This document shows, one piece after another, positions 17,887 through 48,934 of a DNA stretch of 64,000 nucleotides. This DNA comes from Deroplatys truncata. Its lineage: Eukaryota > Arthropoda > Insecta > Mantodea > Mantidae. The DNA lies in assembly GCA_030765065.1 (NCBI GenBank), contig CM060977.1:94877795-94941794 (forward strand), written 5' to 3'. Position 1 is the stretch's first letter. Every line of letters starts with the position of its first letter. Position numbers and translations under genes: made by a program. The notes beneath the pieces are model-generated. The model had not been told where the DNA came from, made no database searches, and saw nothing but the letters and a program-made list of their open reading frames with translations.

Positions 17887-18100
17887 TACTCGGTAGAGGA
17901 GGTATTGTACTCCTCGCAAAATATATTATAACGGGATTTAATTGGAAACATTATTTCAAAATTAAAAAATGCACATCAAAAAGGATTTGTGTGTGTGTGT
18001 GTGTGTGTGTGTGTGAACAGCATAACTCTAAAAAGGATCAGTCGGATTAATACCAAACTTCGCAAGTTCATCGTATTGCAAGAATACGATATGAAGCTTT
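17887..18100 (+). repeat. R850 head fragment
   Basis: 'ggtagaggaggtattgtact', then the GT microsatellite and 'gtgtgaacagcataactcta'. It ends after 'aagaatacgatatgaagctt'. Only the first ~200 bp of the element is present. Confidence 0.7.
17988..18015. repeat. (TG)n microsatellite
   Basis: About 14 dinucleotides immediately before 'gaacagcataactc', the canonical GT position inside R850. Confidence 0.95.
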
Positions 18101-18298
18101 TTTACACGGAAAATATTATGTTTGATTTTCTAAAGTTACTTCAAGTATTCTTTTCTTACATAAGCTTATTATTATATTTCTTATTTATAATTCCATGCTC
18201 TTTATATGGCCACAGAAAGACAGAAATAAAAAAGAAAACGAATAGGGTCTTACCAGTTGAGAAATTATATGTAGATACTTGATAGTTCAAACCAATAA

Positions 18299-19153
18299 AA
18301 CAAATCTGATGTGTTGCACTCACATGACTCTCTTATTATCACAAACGCTTATTCACATTCTACTTTATGTTAATATAGATAAACATTTGTAGAAATTATC
18401 TTATTGCTAATGTTATTGTAGGTACAAGGGGAATATGGTAGGCTTTAAGCGATACTCAAATGTTTTAATAGCTGGTTACTATGTGGCGCATTCCATTCTC
18501 TTTGCGTGTCCAGGACATAAAACAAACCAATAACGAATTCCCATTTGAGAAAAAGTATAAGTATTGAAAATTCAAACAAATAACAAGGAATATCTCGAAA
18601 ATGGTTCACTCGACAAATAGAGGTGTATATGAACTAAATTGTGTTTTAACGAGATCCATATTTTTTGTGTACTAACATTTTGTCTATCTCTTACAGTTTA
18701 CCAGTTATGCGAAAGTCATTCAGAATGAGGATGACTTTTGGGAATATTCATAGAAAATTCAAGATATACATATTATTTTCCATGAAAATATGTTAAACAT
18801 ATGATATTTTAATCAAAACTGTTAGAGGCATGTTTGAAAGAATCAAGATTTTCCAAAAATATTGAATTGAAAATAGTCTGGGGTTGGGAGCTCTTCTTGA
18901 AAATTTTCATCTCGCATCATTGAAATATACTAAACACAAATGCTAAGTTTGGTATATATCCGAATTTTCGTTTTTGAGTTATGCTGTTCACAGAGGCACA
19001 CAGACAGACGTGCACACGGACAGGTTTTCAAAAATGCTTTATTTGGATTCAGGGCACCTCAAAGTATGTATTTCCGGTCAAATCGCGGTATCAAATTTTT
19101 GGGTGGAATGCACTACTTTCCCTTCTTACTATATGTAGTAAGGAAAGTAAGAA
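18299..19153 (-). repeat. R850 repeat, subtype A full-length copy
   Basis: Begins 'caaatctgatgtgttgcact' and ends 'actatatgtagtaaggaaag'. All modules are present in inverse order. Confidence 0.85.
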
Positions 19154-19673
19154 ACGAATAACGAATTCGCATTTGAGAAAATGCATAACTATTGGAAAAT
19201 TCAAACAAGTAACAAGGAATATCTCTGAAGTGGTTCACTCGATCAAAAGTTTGTGACATAAATAAAGTGATTTAACTAGATGCACATATTTGTATAGTAA
19301 AATCTGTCTATCTCTTACGATTCATCACTTATGCGAAAGCCAATGGGAATGAAGAGGACTTTTGGGGACATTCCCATAAAATTCAAGATAAACGTTTCAT
19401 TTGACATGAAAATATCTTAAACATATGATAACTTGGAGAAAATCGTGGTGTCGCATGCTTGGAAGATAGTAAACTCAAATTCCAGGTTTGGTATTTATCC
19501 GATTTTTGATTCTCGAGTTTTGCTGTTCACCGACAGAGAGACGCACACATGGACATGTTTCCAAAAATACTTTATTTGGGCACCTGAAAACATGTATTTC
19601 TGGTGAAATATCGGTACCGAATTTTTTAGTGAAATGCATACTTCCCCCGCTTAGTATACGTAGTAGAGAAGGC
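19154..19673 (-). repeat. R850 repeat, tail-truncated copy in tandem with the previous one
   Basis: Starts at 'aacgaataacgaattcgcat', so about 300 bp of tail is missing, and runs to the head 'tagtatacgtagtagagaag'. Directly joined to the preceding copy in the same orientation. Confidence 0.8.
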
Positions 19674-19728
19674 AATATCTTGAAAATTGTTAAGTTCAGA
19701 AAAAAAATTCACACATTCTGCGTTCCAA

Positions 19729-19776
<48 letters not shown>

Positions 19777-19813
19777 GTAGTAAGACTTTAAGTATCTCTT
19801 GGGATTTCCCATG
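19674..19813 (-). repeat. R850 repeat, left part split by a mariner
   Basis: Includes an (AT)n expansion at 19,731-19,772 and then 'tttgtgtagtaagactttaa'. Resumes at 21,117 after the mariner. Confidence 0.65.
19731..19772. repeat. (AT)n microsatellite
   Basis: About 21 AT dinucleotides inside R850, at a position corresponding to the 'ctacattttttgtgtag' region. Confidence 0.95.
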
Positions 19814-19815
19814 TA

Positions 19816-21116
19816 CGAGGGCAGTCCAGAAAGTCCCGGACATTTTGGTCTATCGTGGCGATGAGTAGGGCTAAAGCCGCCATCTTGGTGTCAGAACGTT
19901 CCTACATTCAGTACGCATCTAGCTGTGGTAGCGTGAGGACTGTGTCTTCCTTGCTGTGCTCTCTGTGAGTTGTTAAAATGTGCGCTGCAATAGAAAATCC
20001 CGCCACTTGTGAAGTGCGGTTGGCTAAAAGGAACAAACCAATTGAAATTTATCGTCAACTTTGTGATGTTTACGGCCAGGGAATAATGAGTGAAAGCCGA
20101 GTCAGGCAATGGTGCATTTACTTTACAAATGGCCGTACCAATGTTCACGACGAGGATCGCAGTGGTAGGCCTAGCGTTATGGCTGATGAACTGTCAATGC
20201 AAATCGATGACAAAATTCGCGAAAATCATCGTTTCATGATTACAGAACTTTCGAAACCTTTTCCCAAATTTCACGGAGTTTGCGCATCAAATTGTGGTGG
20301 AGAAGCTTGGTTACCTCAAATTGTGTGCTAGCTGGGTTCCAAAAATCTTAACGGAAGACCATAAAAAACAGAGATTGGCTGCATCACTGACCTTCCTCCA
20401 AGATTTCAACAAATATGGTAACGCTTTACTCGATCGTATCGTAACTGGGGACGAGACTTGGGTGAAGCACGTTAATTGTGGAACAAAACAGCAGTCATGG
20501 AATGGGGACATACACATTCTCCCAAGAAACCTAGATAGTGTTTGCAAACGCTGTCAGCAAGAAAGGTCATGGGAGTCTAAGGGGGTGCTTCTCGTTGAGT
20601 TTCTGGAACGTGGAACGACAATAACCTCAGAGACGTATTGTGAAATGCTAAGAAAGTTAAGGCGTGCCATACAAAATAAGCATCGGGGAATACTTAGCAC
20701 CAAGGTGACGTTTCTTCACGACAATGCACGCCCACATACGGCCAATCGTACCCGAACACTCTTGGATGGTTTTGTATGGGAGGTGTTTGACCATCCACCA
20801 TACAGCCCGGATTTGGCTCTGAGCGACTACCACCTCTTCCCAGCGATGAAGAAATGGCTCGGTACACAACGCTTTGATACTGACGCTGAACTGCATGCCG
20901 GTGTAAAGGAGTGGTTGAAATCGCAGGCGGCAGATTTCTACAGAGAGGGTATTGAAAAACTTGTACCACGGTATAATAAATGCCTCAATTTGAATGGCGA
21001 TTATGTAGAAAAATAGCTTAAGTGTGTACCTTTCAAATGTAGATAATAAACGTTGATATTTGTATTTTGTTAATTGTTTATTTCAAAACGTCTGTGGACT
21101 TTCTGGATTACCCTCG
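19816..21116 (+). mobile_element. mariner element, best-preserved transposon in the window
   Basis: The TIRs are CGAGGGCAGTCCAGAAAGTC and the inverse 'gactttctggattaccctcg'. They are flanked exactly by TA at 19,814-19,815 and 21,117-21,118. Length 1,301 bp, typical for mariner. Inserted within an R850 copy. Confidence 0.92.
19978..21016 (+). pseudogene. mariner transposase (D,D34D), lightly damaged
   Basis: Starts MCAAIENPATCEVR at 19,978 and ends NLNGDYVEK with TAG at 21,014, close to the ~345 codons usual for mariner. Order: an N-terminal HTH in which some residues are deleted after CEVR; a second HTH with GRPSVMADEL; the linker YLKLCASWVPKIL; the first Asp in VTGDETWV; the second in FLHDNARPHTA; the third in YSPDLALSDYHLFP. 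I count 34 residues between the second and third Asp, the diagnostic D,D34D spacing, and all three catalytic Asp are present. Defects: a frameshift near 20,270-20,300, and a shifted segment near 20,500-20,580 (the stretch after QQSW reads NGDIHILPRNL, out of register with the family). No in-frame stop in the catalytic half. Inactive as it stands, but recently so. Confidence 0.9.
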
Positions 21117-21400
21117 TATAAGAGATTCAGAAAGAAAAATTCACAGGCTATTCCCAAAAATACAAGACATTATATTTGTCATAAAAACATCTTAAAAGCA
21201 TGGTATTTTAATAAAAAATGTTAGTCATTTTAGAAAGAATCAAGAATATCGAAACGAAAGGACAGATTGAGATTTGGGGGAGGAATTTTCTTGAAAATAT
21301 ACGTCACATTTTTGGAAGATACTCAGCTGAAGTACAAAGTTTGTTATGTAACGTACTTTAAGTTTTTGAGTTCACATTGTCCGTGTGTACAGAACTTTCT
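21117..21400 (-). repeat. R850 repeat, right part after the mariner
   Basis: Continues with 'attcacaggctattcccaaa', 'ggtattttaataaaaaatgt', 'ggaggaattttcttgaaaat' up to the 'gttcacattgtccgtgtgta' region. The head is lost. Confidence 0.75.
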
Positions 21401-21542
21401 TCTAAAAATCTTGTGTTACAATCGTATAATTTACTCTCTATCATTTATTAACGAAATAACAAATATTCAAGCTTATATTTCTACCTAATTCATTTTAATC
21501 GAGTTAAAGCTTTGCAGAAATAGCATTACACATTTAGTTATA
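21401..21542 (-). repeat. R850 subtype B tail, split by a transposon
   Basis: 'ttactctctatcatttatta', 'cattttaatcgagttaaagc', 'catttagtta'. Resumes at 22,298. Confidence 0.8.
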
Positions 21543-22297
21543 CAGGGTGTATCATAATTAACAGTGTAAACTGAAACGGTTGAAAGTGTACGATAATAGA
21601 AATAAAAGCGTTACGGTAAACATGGTTACACAAACGAGCTATGAGCCAGATAATTTCAAATGTGTGTGATTACAAGCCGACACTGACTTCATTAAGCAAT
21701 ATCGCCCTATTAGTACAAATTAATTTAAAAGGAAGATTTTCGCTTAGTATTTAACATTTTAGGTTATCTCAAAGTTCACTTATAGCTGAACTTAACGAGC
21801 AATACAATTCTACATTATAATGTTACATGTTATTAATCACTCTTCCCTGCTAAAGGAGTTGTTCAAAGTGTTGTTCTTGCATCTGGATGGAATATTGCAA
21901 TCGCCTCTGCAGCGAATTTAAAATTCTTTCAAACACTCCCGGATCATCTCGGAATTCTTTATAAGCAGTAAAAGCACGTTTTAGGTGGCCACATACAGAA
22001 AAACTTAAAGGATTGAGATCAGGTGATAGTGGAGGCCAAGGTGCAGGCCCTCCTCGACTTATCCATCTTGGACCATATCTCCAAGTTAGACGTCTTCTTA
22101 CAATAGCAGCAAAATGTAGCGGTGTTCCATCATGGATGCACCACTAACTCTGGGGTTCCTCAAGGGGAACATCCTCAAGAATTCACGTCATTGCCGGCTC
22201 ATAACAGCACTTGTTTGCTGGATTTTTTTTTTTTTTTGCTTATATTATCAGATACTTTAAACCCTTTCACGTTGCGTTATTAATTATGATACATCTC
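21543..22297 (-). mobile_element. Internally deleted Tc1/mariner-type transposon
   Basis: The ends are CAGGGTGTATCATAATTAAC and the inverse 'attaattatgatacatctc'. TA is at 21,541-21,542 and 22,298-22,299. About 755 bp, so roughly half of a full element is gone. Inserted inside an R850 copy whose sequence continues on both sides. Confidence 0.8.
21850..22150 (-). pseudogene. Transposase C-terminal fragment
   Basis: A minus-strand translation from about 22,150 gives HDGTPLHFAAIVRRRL, then WISRGGPAPWPPLSPDLNPL and the tail GHLKRAFTAYKEF. It ends EQHFEQLL with TAG at 21,850. HDG holds the second catalytic Asp and SPDLNPL the third. The N-terminal DNA-binding domain and first Asp are missing. The family is the arthropod Tc1/mariner relative with the WPPRSPDL signature; the exact clade is not determined. 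Confidence 0.75.
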
Positions 22298-22975
22298 TAG
22301 ATAGAAAGGGGATAGCGATAATCAAATGTTTAAGAACTGGACGGTATATGCTGGCGTATAAATTCCATACTGTTTCTATGCAATTGCGAGAAACAACTGA
22401 ATGTCGACAGGACTTTAAAATAATGACAAAGAATGGAATAATTCAAACCATTAACGGATATCTAGGAAATGGCTTATGCCACAAGAAGGGTTATTTGAAA
22501 TACATTTTGTGTTTGAAGAGATCTACGTTTTATTGTGATGTGCATTTCCGTCTCTGGCTTAAACTTTGCCAGTTATATAAGATTATATAAAATTCTTTTG
22601 GAATAAATAAGACTTCATAGGTTACTCCAAGAAAATAGAAGATAAACATGTAAATATCTTTAATATGTATCTTGAATAATATGTATCTTGAATATCTTGA
22701 AACATATTCGTTCCATTTTTAAGAAAATAATAACTTTTTCAAAATGTTGTATGTAAATTGTATTTGAGGGTAGGAGGAGTTTGTTAAAACTGTTCTTGTT
22801 GCATCTTTGGAAGATACTGAAATTGAATACAAAGCACGGACACAGACCCTTTCTCCAAAAGTTTTTGTTTTTGAATTCAGAAACTCTTAAAGCCTGTGTT
22901 TCCGTTGAAATCTTCATATGGAATTCTTGGGGAAATGCAACACTTTTTCTACTGGTGTAATTTAGTAAAAGTGTG
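22298..22975 (-). repeat. R850 subtype B repeat, right part
   Basis: Continues from the split copy: 'gatagcgataatcaaatgtt', 'aacaactgaatgtcgacagg', 'gcttatgccacaag', down to the head near 22,960. A short duplication of 'aatatgtatcttgaat' occurs at about 22,661-22,692. Confidence 0.8.
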
Positions 22976-23022
22976 AGTAGAGAAAATCATGTGAATGCAA
23001 CACATCAGATTCTTTTTTTTAA
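22976..23022 (+). repeat. R850 tail in opposite orientation, fused to the preceding copy
   Basis: 'gagtagagaaaatcatgtga' and 'cacatcagattcttttt' follow directly where the minus copy should show its own head end. An inverted chimera. Confidence 0.7.
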
Positions 23023-23865
23023 GGAATTTGCCTTAAAAGGCTGCAGAAGCATTTCTAAGAGGGTTGTTTGTGAAGTTTCGAAGCAAGGCTGTGGTTTATT
23101 TTTTGGGCTTTTAGCATCTTTTAATCTTAAGTGAGTATTATTAGTTTAACACAGGCACACATTTACAGATTTCAGGGCTAACGTTTTCTCTCTCCAGCAG
23201 TCTCTTTGTCCCCCTTTGCGCGTTCCATCTCTGTCACTCTAAGCTCTGTAATCTGCTAAGTGAAGCTGTGATCCTCCAGCAGAGCATCTCCTTCTCTCTT
23301 TTCATCTCACCCATATCAAACCTCTTTCTAAAAGCTTTTCATAAGAAATAGACGCGCCACGAATCGTGAAATAAGAGTAGACAGCGAGTCGCTAGGGTGT
23401 GGTGTTGGGGTGGAAACGTAACCTGTCATTCCTGAGCAAGGTCTCAAGTTAAATTTCAGGACACGACACATTTTCAGTAACCCTCTTCGCCAGTGAAAAA
23501 GGAGGAGCTTTCTTTCTCCCCCACCTGCCGACCTGAGAGGGACACATTTGTACGAATTGGCCTCCAGGGAAAGAGAGACGAAATTTAATCGAGATGATGA
23601 CTTTTTTTCCTTGATATCGAATGTCGTGCCAGATAGGTTTCAGAAAAGGGAAACTAATGAACGGGTGTCATTGGGCCACTGCGTTGCGCTTTGTCTTTCT
23701 CCAATACCTTCGATCGTCCACGGGCGAACAGCAGTTCCACCGAAGGGGCATCATAATTTTATTTCATTGCATTGCGTCAAGAATTGATATACTTTCAGTG
23801 ACCAAAGTAGAGTCGATTAATTAATAAATACAATAAAATGAGGTAGGTTCAATCGACCTAACACG
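23023..23865. other. Unique-looking interval, no supported gene
   Basis: Moderately GC-rich, with pyrimidine-rich tracts around 23,190-23,300. Open frames at 23,548-23,824 on the plus strand overlap each other in different frames and match nothing known to me. Confidence 0.45.
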
Positions 23866-24525
23866 ATCTGACTTTCTCTACTCCCTATCATTTATTACCG
23901 GTATACAAACTAGTTTTACGGAAGCTTATTTTTCTATCTACCTCATTTTAATCGAGACAAACCGTTGCGAAATAGTTACGTTACACACTTCAATATAATT
24001 ACAAACGAAACAGCGATAGTCAAACGTTTAAGAATTGGACTGTATTGGGCTTCAATACTAGGCTTCATACAGTTTCTATGACATGCGAGAAGTAACTGAA
24101 AATCGACAGGACTTCAAAACAAAGTATTGAACAACTCGAACCATTAGTAAGCGATATATCGAAATTGCTGTTGAAATTAAAGAAGAACTTATTTGAAAAA
24201 AATGTTATTTTTAAAGAGATCTACATTTTTTGTGTATTACGTTTTCGTCTGTCCCTTAACATTTACCAGCTACACAAGATCTACAAAATTCCTCCAAATG
24301 AAAACAACTACACAGGCTATTCGCGAAAAATTCAAGATATGCATTTTGTTGTTAATGTACATATCTTTAATATACGGTATTTTAATAATATTTTTTGTGA
24401 AAATCAAACATTTACAAAAATTTTCCATATAAATGGGTTGTTGTGAAGGGGAAATACTGAGCTTAGCAGCCAAGCTTTTTGTCTATCCGACTTACCGTTT
24501 TGACTTACCTATGCTGTTCACTTCT
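23866..24525 (-). repeat. R850 subtype B repeat, truncated at the GT position
   Basis: From 'gatctgactttctctactcc' to 'cctatgctgttcac', exactly where the GT tract would begin. The head third is missing. Confidence 0.8.
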
Positions 24526-24526
24526 A

Positions 24527-24592
24527 AGATTAGTTTGTAGAAGAATGAGTAGGAATAATCATGTGGATGGAACGCATTAGAATTTTTTCTAT
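24527..24592 (+). repeat. R850 tail fused in inverted orientation
   Basis: 'attagtttgtagaagaatga' through 'acgcattagaattttttc'. Joined to the truncated minus copy at its 'ctgttcac' break. Confidence 0.65.
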
Positions 24593-24656
24593 ACATTTCA
24601 TGATAATGGAGTTGAATTATTCCAGAAATACTTTAATTAGTATTTCGGTTTAGGTA

Positions 24657-25950
24657 TAGGGTCTGTCAACAAGAGTGTCCTATCTTTAACATGTGATACC
24701 TGCTGTTCTTATTGAGTTACAACAGTCATTCTTTCATGTGGTTACAATTGTTATTGAAAAATAGCCATGGAACGATACAGTATTCAGTAACACGCAGAAA
24801 TTGTGAAAAATTATTATCAAAATGGATCATCTATTCGCCAAACCTTTGAGTATTGCGTGAAGCTTACGGTGTACATAATTGTCCCTGCAAGAGAACTATT
24901 CGCGTTTGATCGATAAATTTGAAAGAAGTGGTTCTATCAGCGATCAAAGAGCGCCTATACGTAATCGACGTAAGCGCTCCAACGAACATAGGCGCCGTTC
25001 GTGAGAGTGTACGCGAGACCGGAAACAAATCAATTGCTCGTCGAGCGCAAGAATTGGGGCTTTCGCTGACTACAGCTTGGCACATTCTGCATCTGGACTT
25101 GAAGCTTCACGCTTACAAAATGGTGCTAACTCAAGAACTAAAGCCCAACGACCATAGGTTGCGCCGTGTATTCGCTGACTGGGATATGGAGCAATTGGAA
25201 GCTGACCCGGATTTTTGTCGAAAAATCATCTGCAGCGACGGAACCCACTTTTGGATGGATGGTTGATTTAGCAAACAAAATTGCCGCTATTGGAGAAATT
25301 ACAATCAATGCAGATTCAAGATCGACCACTTCATCCCCAAAATGTTACTGTTTGGTGGGGATTTTTGTATGGGGGAATCATTGGACCATATTTTTTCCAA
25401 GACGAAGATGGAGAAGCTCTAACTGTCAATGGAGAAAGATACCGGGCTCTTATAAGGGACTATTTTTTGGCCTCAATTGGATGGTGTGGATCTCAGAAGC
25501 ATCTTGTTCCAGCAATATGGTGCCACATGTCATACTGCTCTCGAAACAATCGATCTTTTGAAGGAGAAATTCAGAGGTTTCATTATTTTCCGTGGTGGTG
25601 ATGTTAACTGCCCTCCGAGGCCATGTGATTTAACGTAGTTGGATTACTTCTTGTGGGGTTATGTTAAATCTCGAGTTTATGTGAATCACTAGAAAGAGTA
25701 AATGATCTTATGAATAACATCACGCGTGTTATTCGTGAAGTTTGACCTAATTTACGTTCCTCTGTCTTTGAAATTGGGTCATACGTATACGCGCAACGCA
25801 ACGAAGTCGCGGCGGTCACTTAACTGATGTCCTCTACCACACGTAATGACATTAATTATGTTCGAAAATAAAAAATAAATAAACCTCTATCATTTATAGA
25901 ACGTATTTTATTTAAGTTCAAAGATAAGACACTCTTTTTGAAGGACCCTA
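24657..25950 (+). mobile_element. Tc1/mariner-superfamily transposon, copy 2 of a two-copy family
   Basis: The ends are TAGGGTCTGTCAACAAGAGT and the inverse 'actctttttgaaggaccct'. TA is at 24,655-24,656 and 25,951-25,952. Same family as 5,236-6,503, in opposite orientation. Confidence 0.85.
24767..25855 (+). pseudogene. Transposase pseudogene, copy 2
   Basis: Start MERYSIQ at 24,767 with a stop after seven codons (ORF1 counterpart: MECYSIQQR). The DNA-binding part is broken by stops and shifts up to about 24,960. A readable stretch at about 24,990-25,266 gives NIGAVRESVRETGNKSIARR, then HLDLKLHAYKMVLTQELKP and the first catalytic Asp in IICSDGTHFWM. A frameshift near 25,265 moves to the frame holding QDRPLHPQNVTVWWGFL, the WWG motif and ASIGWCGSQKHLVPA. 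The second Asp region GATCHTALETIDLLKEKF is readable only in a third frame around 25,520-25,570. Stops follow. The catalytic half is better preserved here than in the copy at 5,340-6,393. Inactive. Confidence 0.8.
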
Positions 25951-25959
25951 TACAGGAGC

Positions 25960-26480
25960 TATACAGAAAACCGAAGGGATAGTCAAATGTTTAAAACAGC
26001 ATCGCTACATCCCGACCTTGAAATTCAACTTTCTGATACGATGTCGCGAGAAACAGCTGAATACATAAAAATTAATATTGAGAAACAGGTCAAGCCAATA
26101 ATATTAAATGGCTGGTGCCACAGAATAAGATATTTGAAACTGTGTGTTTTAAAGAGAACCTAACCTACATATGTTGTGTAGTACGTCTTCGTCTCTCTCT
26201 TATGGGTTAATCATTATACAAAATTATACAAGATTATTTTCAATAAAGAAACTTTACGTTCATTGACAGAAAATTCAGTATACAAATTTAAATTGTCATG
26301 CAAGCATCTCAAATATTCGGTGTTTGAATCACAATCGATAGTCATTTTTGAGAAAGTAACACACATTTTTTCATGTAAAGCTAGTTTTAGTAAGGCTATT
26401 TTCCTGAAAATCTTTGTATCGCATCCTTAGAAAAAGCTGTGCTAAAATACCAATTTTGGTTTCTTAAAGAGTTTTCGTTA
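25960..26480 (-). repeat. R850 subtype B repeat, head-truncated
   Basis: 'gggatagtcaaatgtttaaa' to 'ttaaagagttttcgttaata', then a switch of orientation. Confidence 0.75.

Positions 26481-27023: not shown

Positions 27024-27025
<2 letters not shown>
26481..27025 (+). repeat. R850 repeat, head to middle, ending at a CA microsatellite
   Basis: Head 'tctatcatgtaagtagtagg', 'ataccaatatctcatcggaa', and on to 'cgactcatggaaaca', where the family sequence stops and (AC)n begins. Confidence 0.75.

Positions 27026-27071
<46 letters not shown>
27026..27071. repeat. (AC)n microsatellite at an inverted R850 junction
   Basis: About 23 dinucleotides linking a plus-oriented copy to a minus-oriented head. 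Confidence 0.95.
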
Positions 27072-27075
<4 letters not shown>

Positions 27076-29534: not shown

Positions 29535-29598
29535 GATTTTCTGCACTCTCTCTTTCACAAACCATTTTTAACAAATCTTATTCTTCTGTTTACTTACT
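29535..29598 (-). repeat. R850 tail fragment
   Basis: 'tctctctttcacaaaccatt' and 'caaatcttattcttctg' match the tail in inverse orientation. It joins a plus copy beginning at the GT position. Confidence 0.5.
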
Positions 29599-29599
29599 G

Positions 29600-30320
29600 G
29601 AAAAGTGTCCGTGTGTGTGAGTTTGTATGTCTGTGAACAGCATAACTCAAAAACGAAAAGTCGGATAAATAAACAACTCGATATTTGGGTGTAGTATCTT
29701 ACAAGAATACGACACAACGACTTTCAAGAAAATTCCGCCACTCCAAACTACCCCTTGCATGGAACACTTTTCGAAAATGTTGATTTTCTCAAAACGGCTC
29801 TAGCAATTTTGATTAAAATATTATACGTTTGAGATATTTTCATGGCAAGTGAAGTATATATCTTGAATCTTATGGGAATATCCCCAAAAGTCCTGTACAT
29901 TCTGACCGAGTTTTGCGTAACTCGTAAACCGTAAGAGAAAGACTAAATTTTTCTAAACAAAAAATGCATATCTCGTTAATTTATGTTGCATACATTTGTT
30001 TGTGGAGTTAACCATTTCCTAGATATTCCTTGTTATTTGTCTGAATTTTCCAAAACTTATACCTTTTCTCAAATGGAATTCGTTACTGGCTTTCTTATGT
30101 CCTGGTTATGCAAAGAGAACGGAATGCTCCACATAGCAACCAGCTCTTAAAGACTTTGACAATCGCTTAAAGCCTATTATATTCCCCTTTCACCTGCAAG
30201 AAAATTAGGAATAACATACTTTCTGCAAATGTTTATCTCGATTAACATGAACCATATGGAGAATAAGCGTTTATAAAAATATTAGAGTGTAGAAAAAGTC
30301 ATGTGATTTTTTTCAAATAA
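29600..30320 (+). repeat. R850 subtype A repeat lacking the head
   Basis: Begins 'gaaaagtgtccgtgtgtgtg' at the GT position, continues through 'gaacagcataactcaaaaac', and ends 'gtagaaaaagtcatgtga'. Confidence 0.85.
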
Positions 30321-31673: not shown

Positions 31674-31896
31674 GCAGCACTTGAACTCAAATACGAAGTT
31701 TGGTATTTAACCGACTTTTCGTTTTTGAATTATGCTGTTCAAATACACACACTCATACGCGCGCGCGAACATTTTTTTCTAAAAATGCTTTCTCTGGATT
31801 TAGAGCGCCTCAAAACCTGCATTTCTGGTGAAACCTCTATGGAAGTTTTAGGTGCAATGCAATACTTCCTCTACCTACTATGTACGTGAAAGAGAA
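31674..31896 (-). repeat. R850 head fragment
   Basis: 'gaagtttggtatttaaccga', 'tgaattatgctgttcaaata', and the end 'ctatgtacgtgaaagagaaa'. The GT position reads 'cacacactcatacgcgcgcg'. Confidence 0.8.
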
Positions 31897-32365
31897 AGTC
31901 TCCCTTTCTCTTTCTTTTCAATCCCTTCCGCAAATTCTACATTTATCCATGATACGTTAAAAGCTGATACATCGTGTGGATGGATATGCATTTTTGTTTA
32001 TATAATTTAAGAATTAAGTATAAATGTTAAAGGAATAAGTAAATCTTACTTTAACTAATAGCTCCAGGCTTTCGCACTGACATTATGGAAGCTTTTATCT
32101 CTCAACGAACTGAAAAAAGAACGCCTTTTTCAACCATTTACCGGAAGGGAAAGTGAGGAAAAAGGAAGGGAGAGCGGAAGCGGAAAGATCAAAGCTTATC
32201 TCCAGTTGCATTTAGAAATACGTAGTTTTCTGTGCTAAGAAAAGATTTGAGCATTTAATGCATCAAACTGTCCTAAACTCTGAGACAAATGAACGTAAAT
32301 ATTTGTAATACGAAGTTTTTTTTTCAAACTGCGATGTCACCGCCAGGTGGCGCTATTAGGCATAG
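31897..32365. other. No recognised feature
   Basis: Unique-looking interval. Confidence 0.45.
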
Positions 32366-39877: not shown

Positions 39878-40564
39878 ATACCAATATCGATTCTCCCGAG
39901 TGACGGAATTAATTAAGCTCAATTATCTTTTAGACTGCAAAGCCTAAAAGTAGAACTTGTAATACAGCGCACATGATCTAAAAGCTTTCTGATTTCATTG
40001 TGACCAACTATGGTTTCAAGTCCAATTACATGGCAATTACTCTTTGTGTTTTCACATATTTAATAATTCGACATGGTTTGATTAGGTTTTAGTTTTCATC
40101 ATGACTTTTTAAATGATTAATTTCCCATGGCGCTCGCATTACCTTTTCATAGCACAAATCATCATAATTCAATGCATTGCAATTCATTATAGAGTTAACC
40201 TATACGTTATATTGGCAGCCTTCTTTGGTCTAAAACGCTATTCTTTTATGTAAGATAACCTACATAAGGATTAAATGGCTGAATTTATGAAATCAGAAGA
40301 AACTAAAATATAACTGAAACTACAGAAGTAGTACAAACTAACACTAGAACTTCTTGCACAAAAATTGCAGAAATCAATATGATATATCATTTAATCGCTT
40401 GATTGGATGTTGAAATATGACAGCTAGCGAATAAACACAACTAGACATCAGACATCTCGCTTTTATAACGTCATTTCCCTGTTTCAAGAGCCGCCTTGTA
40501 AACGGAATTTCTGTTAGTTTCAGGAATCAATAGAATATTATTGATATTTTACAAATTCCAGCGA
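39878..40564. other. No recognised feature
   Basis: AT-rich; no supported gene or repeat. Confidence 0.5.
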
Positions 40565-41254
40565 TATGTAAAAAATCTGATGTGTTACACACTCACATGA
40601 CTTTCTCTACTCTTGTACAAACTATTTTTACAAACGCTTATTCTCCATATGCTTCATGTTAATCGAGATGTTCATCTTATTGCTAATTTTCTTGTAAGTG
40701 CAAGGTGAGTATGGCAGGCTTTAAGCGATAGTCAAATCTTTTAAGAGCTAGTTGCTATGTGACGCAGTCCTTTGCATGTACAGTACATAAAAGCAATGAA
40801 TAACGAATTCCCTTTGAGAAAAAGTATAAGTATTGGAAAATTTAATGGAATAACAAGCAATATCCCGAAAATGGTTCACTCAACAAAAAATGTATATGAT
40901 ATAAACTGTGTATTTTAACGCGATCTACATTTTTGTGTAGTAAAATTTTGTCTATCTGTTAGGGTTTACCAGTTATACAAAAGTGTTCACAATGAAGAAT
41001 ACCTTTGGAGACATTCCCAGAAAATTCGAGATATACATATCATTGTTATGAAAATATCTTAAACATATGATATTTTAATCAAAATCGTTAGAGCTATTTT
41101 TGAGAAAATGAAAATTTTCGAAAAACGTTCCATGTAAAGGGTAATCAGAGGTGGGCAGATTTTCTTGAAAAACTTCGTATCGCATCTCTGGAAGATACTG
41201 AACCTAAATACCAAGTTTGGTGTTTATCCGACTGTTTGTTTCTGAGTTATGCTG

Positions 41255-41296
<42 letters not shown>

Positions 41297-41432
41297 GACA
41301 TGTTTCCAAAAATGCTTTTTTGGATTCAGGGGGTCTCTAAACATATATTTCCGGTGAAATCTCGGTATCGAATTTTTGGGTGGAATACAATACTTCCCCA
41401 ACTTACTATACGTAGTAGAAAAAGTAAAAATA
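40565..41432 (-). repeat. R850 subtype A full-length copy
   Basis: Begins AAAAATCTGATGTGTTACAC and ends ACTATACGTAGTAGAAAAAG plus TAAAAA. A clean example of both termini in about 865 bp. Contains the CA expansion at 41,257-41,289. Confidence 0.9.
41257..41289. repeat. (CA)n microsatellite inside R850
   Basis: Directly follows 'gagttatgctgtt', the canonical position. Confidence 0.95.
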
Positions 41433-42111
41433 GTACATGACACATATGTTAAAAGTGGTTTTATTTTCCTACTCGCAAAATAAAACCCTATTTTTACCCC
41501 TTGTCTCATAATCTACTACTGTTACTTTAAAGAGGGAGATTACAGGTTTGCAAACGTAATTACGTTTATACTGAGCGCCACGTTTCCAAGTAGATTTTAA
41601 CCACGTAAAAAGTATTTTATCTGGCACTACTTGCCTTAATTAGTTTTACTACTTACACCTGGATTTGTGGAAATTTTAATAATAGCATACACAACAATTT
41701 CAACTTTTCTTAGAGAATGATTACACCCACTAAAAGCGTAATCTTTTAAAGTCGCTGTGGTAAAAGACACACCGTTGTGAAAAGTGGAGATCTGACGTGA
41801 CTGCGAAAAATAATTATGAAGAATCCGGCACACAGGAGTCCTCCCACTCACAAGGAGAAAAACCCTTTGCTTTGCCAGTTCTCAACGTTAGCCAGCAATT
41901 TGTTGCTGTTTTCTGCATGGCATCGTCGCTTCCTGCTTCGTCGTAAGAATAATGTTGACGGCGAAACGATAAGCATCTCTACAATTTAAAATAAACCAGC
42001 TTTTATACGACTGTATTTCAAATGCTGCTTCCAATGGAGGGAGAGAATGTTCAAAATAAAAATACTTAAAATAGCAACAGCGCATCCCTCCCGAATTTTA
42101 TTTCTTATTTC
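41433..42111. other. No recognised feature
   Basis: Unique-looking interval between R850 blocks. Short open frames on the minus strand, no recognisable domain. Confidence 0.5.
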
Positions 42112-42112
42112 T

Positions 42113-42366
42113 CTTTTTACTTTCAGTGCTGCTTACCTATAGTAAGCATTCCATAAAAAAATTGGATATTGGAATTTCACCGGAAAATTACGTTTTGATA
42201 CTTCCTGAATCCAACAAAAATACTTTTAGAAAAAGGCAGTTGTGCGTGTGTGTGAAAACCAAAATTTAACAAAAAAGTAAGTTAAATGCCAAACCTGGTA
42301 TTTATGGTTTTGTATCTTACAAGGATGCGACACGAGAATCTTCAAGAAAATCCCTCTACTCCAACT
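42113..42366 (+). repeat. R850 head fragment, first unit of a tandem array
   Basis: Head 'ttactttcagtgctgcttac' through 'aatgccaaacctggtattta' to 'ccaactaccctttt', then directly a new head. Confidence 0.85.
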
Positions 42367-43227
42367 ACCCTTTTTACTTTTTACTTTCTCTGCTACATAT
42401 AGTAAGTAGGGGAAGTATTGTATTCCTCCCAAAAATTTGATACCGAGATTTCACCGGAAATATATGTTTTGAGATCCCCTGAGTAAAAAAAAGCATTTTT
42501 GGAAACATGTCCGTGTGTGTATGTATGTGTGTGTCTGTAAACAGCATAACTCAGAAACGAACAGTCAGATAAACACCAAACTTGGTATTTAGGTTCAGTA
42601 TCGTCCAGAGATGTGACACAAAGGTTTTCAAGAAAATCCCCCACCCCAGATTACCCTTTACATGGAAGTTTTTTCGAAAATTTTTATTTTCTCAAAAACT
42701 GCTGTAACGATTTTGATTAAAGTATCATACGTTTAAGACATTTTTATGACAAATAAAATGTATATCATGAATTTTCTGGGAATGTCCCCAAAAGTATACT
42801 TCATTTGAACGAATTTTGCATAACTGGTAAACCATAAGAGATAGACAAAAGTTTACTAGACAAAAAATGTAGATCGCGTTAAAGTACACAACTTATACCC
42901 TATACATTTTTTTATTGAGTGAACCATTTTTAAGATATTGCTTGTTATTCCCCTAGATTTTCCAATACTTATACTTTCTATTAAAGGGAATTCGTTAGTC
43001 ATTTTTTTTATGTCCTGGACATGCAAAGACAATGGAATGCTCCACATTGCAACCAGCTCTTAAAAGATTTGACTATCGCTTAAAGCCTACCGTATTCACC
43101 TCTGCACCTACAGGAAAATTAGCAATAACATTAACATCTCAATTAACTGAAGCATATGGAGAATAAGGTTTGTAAAAATAGTTTGTACAAGAGTAGAGAA
43201 AGTCATGTGAGTGTAACACTCAGATTT
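42367..43227 (+). repeat. R850 subtype A reference copy
   Basis: Full unit of 861 bp. Modules in order: head ACTTTCTCTGCTACATATAG with the near-palindrome CTACT…AGTAG; 'gataccgagatttcaccgga'; GT-rich 'gtgtgtatgtatgtgtgtgt'; 'aaacagcataactcagaaac'; 'accaaacttggtatttaggt'; 'accctttacatgg'; 'taacgattttgattaaagta'; 'cataactggtaaaccataag'; 'atgtcctggacatgcaaaga'; 'agctcttaaaagatttgact'; tail 'gagtagagaaagtcatgtga' and CAGATTTTTTT. No open frame of note on either strand. Confidence 0.9.
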
Positions 43228-44080
43228 TTTTACTTTATCTACTACGTATAGTAAGTAGGATTCCACTCAAAAATTCGATACCGAGATTTCACGGAAATAC
43301 ATGTTTTGAGGTCTCCTGAATCCAAAAAAAGCATTTTTGGAAACATGTCTGTGTGAGTGGCTCTGTGTCTGTGCGAGCGTGTGTCTGTGAACACAATAAG
43401 TCAGAAACAATAGTCGGATAAACACCAAACTTGGTATTTAGGTTCAGTATCTTCCAGAGATGCGACACGAAGGTTTTCAAGAAAATCCGCCTACCCCGGA
43501 TTACCCTTTAATGGAACTTTTTTCGAAAATTTTTATTTTCTCAAAAACTGCTCTAAGGATTTTGATTAAAGTATCATAAGTTTAAGACATTTTTATGGCA
43601 AATAAAATGTATATCTTGAATTTTGTGGGAATGTCTCCAAAAGTGTTCTTAATTGTGAACGACTTTTGCATAACTGGTAAAGCATAAGAGATAGACAAAA
43701 TGTTACTACACAAAAATGTAGATCGCGTTAAAATACACAATTTATGTCATATACATTTTTTATTGAGTGAACCATTTTCGATATATTGCTTGTTATTCCC
43801 CTAAATTTTCCAATAGTTATACTTTCTCTCAAAGGAGAGTTCGTTAGTCATTTTTTTATGTCCTGGACATGCAAAGAGAATGGAATGCGCCACATTGCAA
43901 CCAGCTCTTAAAAGATTTGACTATCGCTTAAAGCCTACCATATTCCCCTTGCACCTACAAGAAAATTAGCAATAGGATTAACATCTCAATTAACATGAAG
44001 CATATGGAGATTAAGCGTTTGGAAAAATTGTTTGTACAAGAGTAGGGAAGGTCATGTGAGTGTAACACATCAGATTTTTC
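43228..44080 (+). repeat. R850 subtype A copy, tandem with the preceding one
   Basis: Same modules, closely similar sequence. The GT position reads 'gtgagtggctctgtgtctgt'. The junction between units is CAGATTTTTTT joined to ACTTTATCTACTACG. Confidence 0.9.
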
Positions 44081-44090
44081 AGGGTGCTAA

Positions 44091-44098
44091 TGCAGCAG
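44091..44098. repeat. Possible left target duplication of LINE fragment
   Basis: TGCAGCAG, matched at 44,355-44,362. Short, so only suggestive. Confidence 0.45.
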
Positions 44099-44354
44099 TT
44101 CCCCACTGACATATGTTTACTCGGAATTGCCCTGTTGAATTCAACTATTTTAACGCACGAAGGGTTATTTGCACGCATCAAATACGGCGCGGTTGGGCCA
44201 CCTGGCATATTATTTGCTATTATTTTCCCTGTTGTTTATTACCATATCTTTGGAATGAATTCTGCAAATTGATTATGGGGTGGTATTCCCCTACAGTGGG
44301 GCGCTAATGACGACTACAGTTGTGCGCCCTAAAACCATACTACTACTACTCCCC
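44099..44354 (+). mobile_element. LINE 3'-end fragment
   Basis: Severely 5'-truncated. Carries a 3' stem-loop, GGGCGC (44,298-44,303) with GCGCCC (44,324-44,329), then 'taaaaccatactactactac'. The layout is the same as the end of the LINE at 15,178-16,668 (stem, short A-rich link, trinucleotide tail), so both likely belong to related LINEs. Confidence 0.7.
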
Positions 44355-44491
44355 TGCAGCAGAAAGAAATGTTTAAGAAGAGTCATCGTGAGCTTCGCAT
44401 TTATATAATATTTTAGTATAACTTTCTTATTTTTAGTCAATTTCGCATTTTATCGCATCTTTCATCATAAACACTAAAAAGTGGTGGCGAA

Positions 44492-45039
44492 TCTCCTCTT
44501 AGAGTATCCCCATTGAAAATCAAAAGGAAAGCCAATAAATTACCTTAGGAGTGAGTTTAGAACAGGATGTGATCTCTTCTGTATCTGGTACCCACCTGTT
44601 CGCCCCTTTTAGGTGTTTTACTTATATAGGCGAATCGCTTCAGGAACACAACAAACGTAGCCATTTTTCGACAATTCACATGCAAAGTGGGTACTGCCAA
44701 CCTACATAAAGAGTGAAATGCGCTAAATATGCGATGTGCTGTTGTTTCTGCGAACGTGAATCATTCGAGTTTTAGACGCAGATCCCTCGGCTACGCTCTG
44801 TCGGTCTCTTCGCAACTTGCTACACTCCTCTCCTAAAAAACATCCATCGGCTACGCTTTGAGGCTGAGGGCCCTCAATCTCTCGGCTACGCCTTAAGGCT
44901 GAGTTTCTTACCGGCTTTGGGGGCATTAGTTATTCATAGTTGCCAGCATTGCGTTAGAGCAAGCGTATGATATAGAGTTACATCTGTTGGACTTATAACA
45001 CATCATTTTCATCGCTGTGGGGGATACTCTAAGAGGAGA
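44492..45039. mobile_element. Short non-autonomous TIR element
   Basis: A perfect 20-bp inverted repeat, TCTCCTCTTAGAGTATCCCC (44,492-44,511) against 45,020-45,039, 548 bp apart end to end. The interior is GC-richer and contains three near-copies of TCGGCTACGC (44,787, 44,847, 44,882), two of them followed by 'TTGAGGCTGAG'-like sequence. No coding potential. Target duplication not clear, so the superfamily is open. Confidence 0.65.
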
Positions 45040-45697
45040 ATGTCGAAAGTGGTTTCTAGGCGGTGAGAATTGAAAATACTATAGCTGAAGGTTTTATTAG
45101 GGTATCAGGCTATATTGCATTTGCTTAAAGTCACCATCTCTGCAGATGTTTTATAATTATTAAAGGCTGCAATCGTTAGAAAGTAATTGAATGTAATTTT
45201 CTATTCAGATATATTGGGGATTACATATTACGAATTACTTAGGTTCAGAACAGATGAGACAAAGCAGATATCTGCTGTGTCTTACTTGTGAAAACCGTCT
45301 TGCCAGAAGACGGTCGATAAACCTGTCTGCATGTGACCGAGTCTAGCTGTACGTAGTTTTATAGCGCTTTTTCGGTTCTTGATTTATAGCTTGGAGAACT
45401 AGTTTCTTTTAATGGATATTGCAAAGATGTTGAAAAACGGTCCTTGTCGCCATGTTGTGTAACGTGCCCCGCATCTGTGACTTCCAAAACTAGGCTACAA
45501 ATGTGAACAGTTCGTAAGGAATTATTTTTCACTCCGTTGTCCTATAACCTAAAGCAGGGGTTCCCAAACTTTTCAGACACATATCTCTCTTAATCTACAG
45601 TTTATTTCGGGGGCGCCTACAATACGAACCACAAAAAAAAATCGTTAAAACAAATCCACGAACTGTTGAATTTATATTAGATTATAGGGTTTTAAAG
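45040..45697. other. No recognised feature
   Basis: Unique-looking interval. Confidence 0.5.
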
Positions 45698-45849
45698 ACT
45701 GCCTCTAATCTGGTGGTTAGTATTCTAGCCTTAAAATTCAGAGGTTCCGGGTTCGATTCTCGCCTCGAGGGCGGGAGGCTTTCTTTAGCCAGGTTAATTT
45801 CCCATTCTCCCTAGAGTATGGAAGTATAAATCTCTGTGTGAATTTAATG
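45698..45849 (+). mobile_element. tRNA-type SINE fragment
   Basis: Box A-like CTGGTGGTTAGTATTC (about 45,710) and box B GGTTCGATTCT (45,750-45,760), then a body 'tagccaggttaatttcccat'. Different from the other two SINE types. Cut at the right by the mariner that follows. Confidence 0.6.
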
Positions 45850-45851
45850 TA

Positions 45852-47109
45852 CGAGGGCTGTCCCAGAAGCACCCGACCTAACAAGGAAAACACAGTAATT
45901 TTAAAAAAAAAGCTTTATTTCTCTACATAGTCCCCTTTCAGCTCGATGCACTTTTCCCAGCGATGTTCAATAGCTTCTATTCCCTGTTTATAGTGAGAAC
46001 CGTCGAGTTCTGCAAAATAGTCATCAACTGCAAACTCTACCTCCTTATTGTTGGCAAATATTTTCCCATTAAGCCATTTCTGCAACTTTGGAAACAGAAA
46101 TAATCTGAGGGGGCTAAGTCTGGCGAATAGGGTGAATGAGGAAACAATTTGAACTTTTAACTCATTGATTTTGGCCATGGCGATAATGGATGTGTGAATT
46201 GATGCATTGTCTTGAACTTTCTTTTTTTTCTCTAAATGCAACTGTTTTTGCTTATTTTTATCATTCAAAAACTGCAATAACTTTGCATAACACTCGTCAA
46301 TGATTGCGTTTCCTTTTTGAAGATAATTAATGAAAATTATCCCAAGCGCATTCCAAAAAATCTGACGCCATATCCCTGCCTGCAGATGGAACTGTCTTCG
46401 CCTTCTGGAGCCGATTCTCCCCTGTTAATCCACTGTTTTGACTGTTCCTTCGTCTCAGGTATTTCATCCATGGTTATGAATCGACGCAAAAACTCGCTTT
46501 ATTGCAGCGAAATATCGCCAACCACTCGACTGAACTATCCTCACGATGCTGCTTTTGTTCCATTGTGAGTAAACGCGGCACCCATCTTGCGCACAGCTTT
46601 CTCATGTATAAATTTTCAGTTGGTGTGCGATGTACAGTACTTTTTTAAATGCCTGTGATGTCTGCTAGCTCGCGCACATTCAGTCGACGGTCATCCAATA
46701 CCATTTTGTGGTTTTTCTTCACAATTTCTGACGTGATCACCTCATTTGGTCGTCCACTGCAACGCTTGTCTTGGCTGCTCGTACGGCCTAACTTAAATTC
46801 TGCCATCCAATATTTTACTGTTGTAAACGAAGGAGCAGACTCCCCCAGAGTACAATCTAGCTCAGCTTGAATTGGACTAAGATCTTTCAAATGAAGGTAT
46901 TGTATCACATAACAATGGCCAATTTTATCCAGGTTTAAAAATTAGCTGAGAGAGTTCACTATTAATGGCTGCCAAACAATTACTAAAGATCGTAGCGTCG
47001 TCAAACTTCAAACTTAAGCTTCATAAGGGTGGTACTCTACCATAGTAATTTGTTTGAAACAACAACTGCTATATATACGTCAGGTCGGGTGCTTCTGGGA
47101 CTGCCCTGG
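45852..47109 (-). mobile_element. mariner element
   Basis: Left TIR CGAGGGCTGTCCCAGAAGCA; right inverse 'tgcttctgggactgccctgg'. Left TA at 45,850-45,851; the right end has drifted by a base. About 1.26 kb. Transposase remnants on the minus strand. Confidence 0.88.
45915..46908 (-). pseudogene. mariner transposase pseudogene (SETMAR/Hsmar-like group)
   Basis: The N-terminal part (from 46,908) reads MIQYLHLKDLSPIQAELDCT, then APSFTTVKYWMAEFKLGRTS, SGRPNEVITSEIVKK and LDDRRLNVRELADITGI: both HTH motifs in usual order. The middle (46,640-46,280) is shredded: AKTVPSAGRDMAS and VDS*PWMKYL mark the region of the first catalytic Asp. The C-terminal part (46,277-45,915) reads ASIHTSIIAMAKINELKVQI, loses the third Asp (LFARLSPLRLFLFPKL in place of YSPDLAPSDYFLFP), and ends EKCIELKGDYVEK with a stop at 45,915. 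The second Asp motif is also altered (VQDNASIHTS). Multiple frameshifts; not functional. Confidence 0.85.
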
Positions 47110-47246
47110 TTATTACACAAAGTAATACCACATAACTGCAAAACAGGTGCACGTCTTTGCCGATGAGCCATTATTCGAAAGCAAAACAGCCGCAGATATG
47201 ACCTCAGGTGTTAAGGGCGGAATATAAATGGAACAAAAGAAAAAAC

Positions 47247-47332
47247 ATCTTATTCACATGACTTTCTCTACCCTCTATCACTTATTGATGGGTATAAAAG
47301 TTATTGGTACGAAATCTGATTACTTTCTTTAC
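47247..47332 (-). repeat. R850 subtype B tail fragment
   Basis: 'cacatgactttctctaccct' and 'tatcacttattgatgggtat'. Followed by a plus-oriented head: an inverted junction. Confidence 0.65.
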
Positions 47333-48020
47333 TATATATATAGTAGGTAGGTGAAGTATTGGATCTCACTCAAAAATTCGATACCGAGACTTCACTGGAA
47401 AGACATGTTTTGAGGCCCCATGCATTTAAAAAGAACACTATTAGAAAATGGTGCATATGTGTGTGTCTGTAAACATCATAAATGAAAAACGAAAAGCCTA
47501 AAAAATGCCAAACTTGGTATTTAAGTTCAACATCTTTCAAAGATGCAACGCGAAGATTTTCAAGAAAATCACTCCACCCCAGACTACCTTTACATGGAGC
47601 ATTTTTCGAACATTTTAATCTTATGGTTCTAACGATTTTGATTAAAATATTATGTTATAAAACGCATAATTTATGTAATATACGTTTTTTATGTCAAGTA
47701 AACCATTTCCGAGATATTCCTTATTTATTTGAATTTTCCAATATTAAACTTTTTCGCAAATGAGAATTCGTTATTCCTTTTTTATGTCCTGGACATGCAA
47801 AGAGAATGGAATACTTAACATAGCAATCAGCTCTTAAAAGATTTGACTATTACTTAAAGCCTGCCATATTCCCCTTGTACCTACAAGAAAATTAGGCATA
47901 AGGAAGTTTCTGCAAAATATGTTTATCTCGATTAACATAAGTAGATGGAGAATAAGCGTTTGTAAAAATAGTTCCTACAAGAGTAGAGAAAGTCATGTCA
48001 GTGTAGCATATCAGATTTTT
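47333..48020 (+). repeat. R850 subtype A copy with internal deletion
   Basis: Head 'actttctttactatatatat' to tail 'gagtagagaaagtcatgtca'. At about 47,650 it jumps from 'gattaaaatatta' to 'acgcataatttatgt', losing about 150 bp. A SINE is inserted in the terminal T-run. Confidence 0.85.
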
Positions 48021-48025
48021 TTTTC

Positions 48026-48311
48026 GTCGCCCTCCGTGGTGTAGTGGTTACCATGCTAGCCTCTAGTTCCCGAGGTTGCGGGTTCAAACCCGGATAGATT
48101 TTTTCGGGCGTGAAAATCTTTAGCATGGCTTCCTTCGGAAGGGAAGTAAAGCCGGTGGTCCCGTGTCGTAGATTTAAGGCACGTAACAAAACATGAAGCC
48201 TGACAAAGAGGACGCTGAGCAACATTGCCGGTCTTTCACGCCCAGTATAGAATGGGACGCTAGAACCACAGCAGTTAAAGAGCGTCCATAAATAAAACTC
48301 AATTTAATATA
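48026..48311 (+). mobile_element. tRNA-derived SINE (~285 bp), copy 2
   Basis: Box A GTGTAGTGGTTA (48,039-48,050) and box B GGTTCAAACC (48,081-48,090). Same body as 33,250-33,515, ending 'aataaaactcaatttaatat'. The flanks 'agattttttttttc' and 'agattttttc' (48,312-48,321) look like a target duplication made within the R850 T-run. Confidence 0.88.
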
Positions 48312-48316
48312 AGATT

Positions 48317-48898
48317 TTTTCTGTCTACTACATTTTAATCCAGAGAAATCCTTGCAGAAGTAACTCCCTTACATTATAAATGCAAAGGGAATAGTAGTCA
48401 AATATTTAAAAACTGGACGCATGCACTAGCCTTAAAATTCCATACTCCGTGCATGCAACTGCAAGAAACAGCTGAAGGTCGACACGACTTTAAAAAATGG
48501 CAAAGAATTGAACAATTCAAACCATTAATAATTGAAATCTCAAAAATGGTAATGCCACAAAAGTTATTTGAAACAAAGTGTGTGTTTTAAAGATATATGT
48601 ATATTTTTTGTGTAGTGCATTTATGTCTATCGCTTAACATTAACAAGTTGTACAAGTTTATAAACACTTCCCTCCTAATGAAGAATTCGTAGGCTATACC
48701 CAGAAATTTCAAGATATAATTTTATTTGCCATGCAAATATGTTTAATATGTGGCGTTTTAATCAAAATCGTTATTAATTTTTGAGAAAATGAAACATTTC
48801 GAAAAATATTCAGGTAGTGGGTAGTTGGAGTGTGGGAAGTTTTGTCACACCTTTAGAAGATACTGACCTTAAATAGTTATGCTGTTCTGACACACACT

Positions 48899-48934
<36 letters not shown>

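What the first reader, a model, noticed from the sequence alone, without database searches (positions are those of the whole stretch)
17988..48934. Microsatellites born repeatedly at one fixed site inside R850
(GT/CA)n tracts at 17,988-18,015, 41,257-41,289 and 48,890-48,934 all lie directly beside 'gttatgctgtt'/'aacagcataac' of an R850 copy. Other copies have short proto-tracts there (29,608, 31,742, 42,512, 43,350, 50,336). This is a microsatellite-seeding element, in the style described for dipteran mini-me elements, but with an unrelated sequence.
Basis: partly seen in the sequence, partly recalled or inferred. Interest (0 to 1): 0.7.

Follow-up and report, generated by a model that had tools for sequence, protein, structure and literature searches.

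The report
Rolling-circle transposon that seeds microsatellites
A very abundant jumping element in a leaf-mantis genome carries a short GT-rich stretch near one end, and that stretch has grown independently into a CA/GT microsatellite in many of the places where the element landed.

Summary
Genome-wide, about a third of perfect AC tracts of 21 nt or more (22,214 of 66,497 on the forward strand) lie within 30 bp after the exact R850 word GTTATGCTGTT. Another R850 word gives 0 forward sites. The genome is almost certainly that of the leaf mantis Deroplatys truncata.

R850 looks like a non-autonomous Helentron-type rolling-circle transposon (HINE, DINE-1-like): 12-bp subterminal inverted repeats, hairpins, T-rich ends, no target duplication. 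Both ends match those of a Rep-encoding Helitron-like element in 3 of 3 copies examined. That element carries the same GT tract, 65, 29 and 61 nt long beside an identical 132-bp 5' flank.

The tract is inherited as a proto-microsatellite and expands copy by copy: 6 long-tract copies need 6 changes on a (weakly supported) tree of 45. The seeding idea holds. 'Unrelated to mini-me' does not hold as a statement of kind, because mini-me is DINE-1. This is a new, very large case of a known phenomenon.

The parts
17887..18131 (-). R850 fragment around the site (model about 615-846); strand is that of the R850 model, the Helentron 5'->3' direction is the opposite
17988..18015 (-). (CA)14 tract at the fixed site, directly after GTTATGCTGTT
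18302..19153 (+). full-length R850 copy, unexpanded proto-tract
27027..27071 (+).
29598..30306 (-). truncated R850 copy with short proto-tract
31681..31899 (+). R850 fragment with short proto-tract
40571..41430 (+). full-length R850 copy with expanded tract
41257..41289 (+). pure CA tract of 33 nt at the fixed site
42378..43229 (-). full-length R850 copy, head-to-tail neighbour of the next one; Helentron 5' end at 42378
42383..42394 (+). 5' subterminal inverted repeat of this copy (1 mismatch to ACTTTCTCTACT), after TTTTT
42513..42539 (+). GT-rich proto-tract of this copy
43192..43203 (+). 3' subterminal inverted repeat AGTAGAGAAAGT of this copy, followed by palindrome and T-run
43227..44079 (-). 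second full-length R850 copy of the tandem pair
48316..48999 (+). R850 fragment carrying the third tract
48890..48934 (+). AC tract (pure part 48899-48924) with TA run at its end
49592..50488 (+). full-length R850 copy with unexpanded proto-tract
11886..12814 (-). full-length R850 copy, short proto-tract
13108..13916 (-). old full-length R850 copy; (CT)6 at the same site (13243-13255)

Best explanation
R850 is a non-autonomous rolling-circle transposon (Helentron-associated, HINE/DINE-1-like). It looks like an internally deleted relative of a Rep-encoding Helitron-like element in the same genome, with which it shares both ends. Both carry, about 130 bp from the Helentron 5' end, a GT/CTGT-rich proto-microsatellite between ATGTCCG and GAACAGCATAACTC. 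Each transposition places this stretch at a new locus. There it either erodes by point mutation or expands by replication slippage into a long (GT/CA)n microsatellite. Shown: the fixed site, shared ends, inherited proto-tract, length differences between copies with an identical 5' flank, and the genome-wide share. Supported but on a weak tree: independent expansions. Inferred: slippage as the cause of length change, rolling-circle replication as the mode of spread, and mobilisation of R850 by the protein of this particular partner.
For: Site: 22,214 forward matches of GTTATGCTGTT with a 21-nt AC run within 30 bp, reversed-pattern control 0; another R850 word 0 forward matches; exact adjacency 6,681 against 0. 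Anatomy, in 17 copies with nearly complete ends: 12-bp subterminal inverted repeats with at most 1 mismatch at the 5' end in 15 and at the 3' end in 13; T-runs at both ends; no target duplication (identical flanks of 3 nt or more in 0 of 17; of 2 nt in 1 of 17 against 1.4 in shuffles); hairpins near both ends; longest stop-free stretch 109 aa in the 12 copies checked. Partner: Helitron_like_N (PF14214) in this genome, 152 matches reported, 0 of 14 control genomes. Three copies become alike at T-run + ACTTTCTCTACT and stop being alike at CACATCAGATTTTTT. R850 is 86-88% identical to the second 5' module of one of them over 667-764 aligned positions and 90-92% to the 3' end of all three over the last 38-40 bp. 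Tract dynamics: lengths 65, 29 and 61 beside an identical 132-bp 5' flank; 6 long-tract copies of 45 need 6 changes on the tree.
Against: The tree is weakly supported (4 starred of 42 inner branches; two of the six long-tract rows have under half of the columns filled), and window tracts 27,027 and 48,899 as well as L025:8882 and L020:2048 are not on it. No empty insertion site was found, so the TT target preference is not shown. Most AC tracts of the random sample lack R850 flanks (8 of 13 loci of 12 nt or more; 3 of 4 of 21 nt or more), so R850 is a main source and not the only one. Helicase and endonuclease domains of the partner were not examined, and the best-scoring Rep matches (up to 196 bits) belong to other groups that were not examined. 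The 3' part shared by R850 and partner is only about 40-60 bp. The 5' modules of the partner are themselves R850-like, so capture of R850 sequence by the partner is not fully excluded. The site is not the only indel-rich part of R850.
Confidence: 0.93

Rival explanations
1. A few long-tract master copies spread; the long tracts are inherited, not born repeatedly.
For: Two long-tract copies lie in the same small group of the young clade (L012_9188-8334 and window_40571-41430, 90/73).
Against: 6 of 6 long tracts need separate changes; 15 of 17 copies of the young clade have runs of 6-11 nt; tract length differs between partner copies with an identical 5' flank.
Confidence: 0.05
2. R850 inserts next to existing CA microsatellites (target preference) and does not make them.
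For: Microsatellite-targeting elements are known (MuTAnT, PMC4486113, seen in search listings only).
Against: The tract is internal: 40 copies have R850 on both sides of it, and the element ends lie about 130 and 710 bp away.
Confidence: 0.01
3. R850 is a dispersed satellite DNA, not a transposon; its tandem pairs and wide spread reflect recombination.
For: Head-to-tail pairs at 42,378-44,079 and several units behind one partner's 3' end; a 3.41-kb periodic array at the start of contig C1.
Against: Full copies have fixed ends, most of them in flanks that are not R850, and both ends equal those of a Rep-encoding element. HINE elements elsewhere carry satellite-like tandem repeats (PMC7492417, passages read).
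Confidence: 0.03
4. Profile artefact: the model itself contains CACACA, so any CA tract looks like R850.
For: The model consensus has CA repeats at the site.
Against: The flank-only, CA-masked test gives 4 of 4 and 5 of 13 against 1.5% by chance, and the pattern counts use a word without CA repeats.
Confidence: 0.01

Closest known systems
DINE-1 / INE-1 / mini-me of Drosophila (non-autonomous Helentron), PMC2374699 (section 6 part 1 and passages) and PMC4067079 (passages)
   Same: Non-coding, subterminal inverted repeats, partial inverted repeat beside the 5' one, GT-rich microsatellite in block A near the 5' end, hairpin after the 3' subterminal repeat, T-rich ends, high copy number
   Different: Other terminal sequences (ACTTTCTCTACT instead of e.g. 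ATACCCGTTACTC), mainly GT/CA rather than (CCGT)n(CTGT)n, long pure dinucleotide tracts; core homology not tested
Helentrons and HINEs of the mite Metaseiulus occidentalis (PMC4067079, passages)
   Same: Non-autonomous copies share ends with Rep-encoding partners; no target duplication; variable terminal T-runs
   Different: Endonuclease of the partner not looked for here; mite families lack the DINE-1 core and IR
Cg_HINE of Crassostrea gigas (PMC7492417, passages)
   Same: 5' subTIR, IR, GTCY-like microsatellite, 3' subTIR and palindrome
   Different: Oyster elements carry satellite-like central arrays; none was seen in R850
Lepidopteran MITEs with hitchhiking (GTCY)n microsatellites (Coates 2011, seen only as a reference in PMC4067079 and PMC9659126)
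   Same: Mobile element that disperses a microsatellite
   Different: Tetranucleotide motif, other host order; paper not read

Membership tests
HINE / DINE-1-like (non-autonomous Helentron) | Subterminal inverted repeats of 11-15 bp | tested here: met
   ACTTTCTCTACT / AGTAGAGAAAGT; at most 1 mismatch in 15 of 17 (5') and 13 of 17 (3') copies
[quoted passage not shown]
HINE / DINE-1-like (non-autonomous Helentron) | Palindrome between 3' subTIR and 3' end | tested here: met
   ATGTG/CACAT stem, end piece -6.6 kcal/mol in which the stem also draws in part of the subTIR; 5-bp stem, shorter than the 7-11 nt of DINE-1, within the 5-10 bp of mite HINEs; no shuffle test
HINE / DINE-1-like (non-autonomous Helentron) | Microsatellite in the 5' block | tested here: met
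   GT/CTGT tract about 130 bp from the Helentron 5' end
HINE / DINE-1-like (non-autonomous Helentron) | T-rich ends, no target site duplication | tested here: met
   T-runs of 2-7 nt (5') and 3-11 nt (3'); identical flanks of 3 nt or more in 0 of 17 copies
HINE / DINE-1-like (non-autonomous Helentron) | Insertion between TT | tested here: inconclusive
   No empty site found in the window and first sample
HINE / DINE-1-like (non-autonomous Helentron) | No coding capacity | tested here: met
   Longest stop-free frame 109 aa in the 12 of 17 copies checked
HINE / DINE-1-like (non-autonomous Helentron) | Autonomous partner with the same two ends and a Rep domain | tested here: met
   3 of 3 copies examined with a PF14214 match share both ends
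Helentron (autonomous partner) | Helicase domain and endonuclease in the ORF | not tested
   Only the first 972 aa of one copy were scanned: DUF6570 and a domain labelled Herpes_teg_N
DINE-1 / mini-me proper | Conserved core of about 33-90 bp | not tested
   No DINE-1 sequence was at hand; similarity of the site's flank to the core is recalled only

The most novel reading that the evidence does not exclude
The GT-rich tract is kept at a like place in Helentron-type elements of flies, molluscs and now a mantis because it does something in transposition (for example as an easily melted or slipped stretch near the 5' end). The microsatellites of a host genome would then largely be the by-product of a working part of one transposon family, here for about a third or more of all long AC tracts in 4.3 Gb.
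Probability: 0.2. Interest if true: 0.7.

Novelty: new member of a known kind. Interest (0 to 1): 0.45.

Why it matters
Where microsatellites come from is often argued from small samples. Here one transposon family, with both a non-autonomous and a coding form in hand, gives about 290,000 intact copies of the same flank word, of which roughly 12-15% now have a perfect AC run of 21 nt or more within 30 bp (22,214 forward matches against 145,341 forward 13-mers; the numerator used the shorter 11-mer, which in the 250-kb sample is 21/16 as common). That would make birth and decay rates of microsatellites measurable against flank divergence. It also warns that AC markers in this mantis will often have repeated flanks.

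Tried and rejected
Insertion at existing tracts: rejected, since R850 lies on both sides of the tract. Profile artefact: rejected by the CA-masked flank test. Empty-site search by joining the flanks of full-length copies: the matches were the copy's own locus, tandem neighbours or related R850 sequence, so no insertion target was shown. A search of viral contigs for CTGTGAACNNNATAACTCAAAAACG gave 0 matches. A genome count of the control word CGGTATCGAATTT could not be had; in the 250-kb sample CGGTATCGAAT occurs 8 times against 21 for GTTATGCTGTT, so rarity alone does not explain the zero. The reverse-strand count (129,335) repeats one site many times and was not used; that forward rows are one per site is read from the roughly 100 rows listed. 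A simple 'older copies have longer tracts' rule was rejected. That the site is the one indel hotspot of R850 was not borne out: positions 721-750 have 4.6 inserted nt per copy and 18.6% deleted, but positions 31-60 have 7.2 inserted nt and 151-180 have 19.3% deleted.

Full report
Where the window lies. The window is C3:94,877,795-94,941,794 of a 4,289,915,091-base genome. [quoted passage not shown] Total size (4,290,792,545 there) and 15+X chromosomes, the X described as the largest chromosome, also fit a genome whose C16 has 707 Mb (passages read, supplements not seen). The identification is therefore almost certain, but it is an inference. [quoted passage not shown]

The observation. A fourth, 27,027-27,071, has R850's right flank only. 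I built an R850 profile from window copies and searched the window plus 20 random 10-kb stretches: R850 covers 29% of the window and 15.1% of that sample. With 5 more stretches, in which it covers 2,360 of 50,000 bases, it is 13.0% of 250 kb. Of 15 pure AC runs of 12 nt or more in the window and first sample, 10 fall on model positions 713-744. Because the profile contains CA repeats I repeated the test with CA runs masked and flank-only profiles: 4 of 4 loci in the window, 5 of 10 in the first random sample (two neighbouring runs of L010 counted as one; L020:2048 not confirmed) and 0 of 3 in the second sample, against 308 of 20,000 random placements.

Whole genome. Perfect AC tracts of 21 nt or more number 53,878 that begin with C and 78,698 that begin with A, 132,576 in all. 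The word GTTATGCTGTT stands directly before 6,681 of them (reversed pattern 0). Within 30 bp there are 22,214 matches on the forward strand (reversed pattern 0), which is 33.4% of the 66,497 forward tracts. Only exact words count and C-start tracts of exactly 21 nt are missed, so this should be a lower bound. A different R850 word, CGGTATCGAAT, gives 0 forward matches and 9 reverse rows from 3 sites (reversed pattern 0 and 1). The 13-mer GTTATGCTGTTCA occurs 289,690 times (reversed 27), so roughly 12-15% of intact sites carry such a tract (see Why it matters for the two words used).

What R850 is. Read on the strand opposite to the model, typical young copies begin TTTTTACTTTCTCTACTACGTATAGTAAGTAG and end AGTAGAGAAAGTCATGTGAGTGTAACACATCAGATTTTT. 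There are 12-bp subterminal inverted repeats, each next to a hairpin, T-runs at both ends, no target duplication and no long coding frame. This is the published anatomy of DINE-1 and HINE elements (PMC2374699 section 6 part 1 and passages; PMC4067079 and PMC7492417 passages), including a GT-rich microsatellite in the 5' block. The site reads ATGTCCG(GT/CTGT)nGAACAGCATAACTC on this strand.

The coding partner. Helitron_like_N (PF14214) gives 152 reported matches in this genome (150 of 291 candidates scored) and none in 14 control genomes; 30 of the listed matches lie in open frames of 1,100-2,543 aa. I fetched the ends of three such copies, all from the group scoring about 104 bits; higher-scoring, more broken groups were not examined. 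At the 5' side the sequences become alike at TTTTTTACTTTCTCTACTACG (L043:362, L044:422, L045:330; one of the three pairings aligns 16 nt further out), with different sequence before it. At the 3' side they stop being alike after CACATCAGATTTTTT (L035:948, L037:485, L039:444; one pairing aligns 10 nt further), again with different sequence behind. R850 is 86-88% identical to the second 5' module of the C5 copy over 667-764 aligned positions and 90-92% to the last 38-40 bp of all three. The partner's 5' region holds two head-to-tail R850-like modules and further R850 pieces, one inverted, before the coding frame. The frame's first 972 aa match DUF6570 and a domain labelled Herpes_teg_N. Head-to-tail R850 copies follow directly behind the 3' end of one partner copy.

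How the tracts arise. In the first 5' module of the three partner copies the tract is 65, 29 and 61 nt long beside 132 identical bases on its 5' side. In the second module it is 25 nt in all three. In 40 R850 copies with both flanks the median longest pure AC run is 9 nt, and 6 copies reach 12 nt or more. On a tree of 45 copies built without the site columns, 6 long-tract copies need 6 changes, so no two are inferred to share one event, though support is weak and four further tract loci are not on the tree. Young copies (17, median divergence 6%) have a median run of 10, old ones (28, 19%) of 6.5. Among copies below 12 nt the run falls with divergence (Spearman -0.51), while long tracts occur in 2 of 17 young and 4 of 28 old copies. 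This fits a proto-tract that erodes in most copies and expands in some. The site is indel-rich, but other parts of the model are as well.

Verdict. The element is not a stranger to mini-me but an element of the same kind. GT-rich microsatellites inside such elements are known from flies and oysters (passages read) and moths (cited only); the scale and the matched coding partner are what is new here. In the searches made I saw no paper describing it for mantises; that covers only the open-licence library, and PMC10415354 was seen in the listing only.

Noticed in passing
genome contig C1:19855-122125 (outside the window): GTTATGCTGTTCA recurs 30 times on the minus strand, mostly 3,406-3,410 bp apart (one double gap): a satellite-like array at a contig end whose unit contains an R850/Helentron site.
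   Followed up: no
L035:891-3191: Head-to-tail R850 units (two full, two partial) stand directly behind the 3' end of a coding Helitron-like copy.
   Followed up: partly
window 42378-44079: Two full R850 copies in head-to-tail tandem sharing the A/T-run at their junction.
   Followed up: partly
window 13243-13255: A (CT)6 run at the same R850 site, so the proto-tract may also give another dinucleotide motif.
   Followed up: no
window 17700-17900: Another dispersed repeat: 39 other genome places listed at 71-88% identity (capped list); looks SINE-like (recalled, not tested).
   Followed up: no
window 5234-6502 and 24658-25952: Inverted segment pairs, 86-89% complementary, with 18-20 kb between the arms.
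   Followed up: no
window 10595-11296, 19969-21016, 45915-46424, 61745-62849: Broken frames that look like Tc1/mariner transposases by recalled motifs; no domain search was run.
   Followed up: no
window 15454-16227: Frame of 257 aa that looks like an RNase H piece of a retrotransposon, by recalled motifs only.
   Followed up: no
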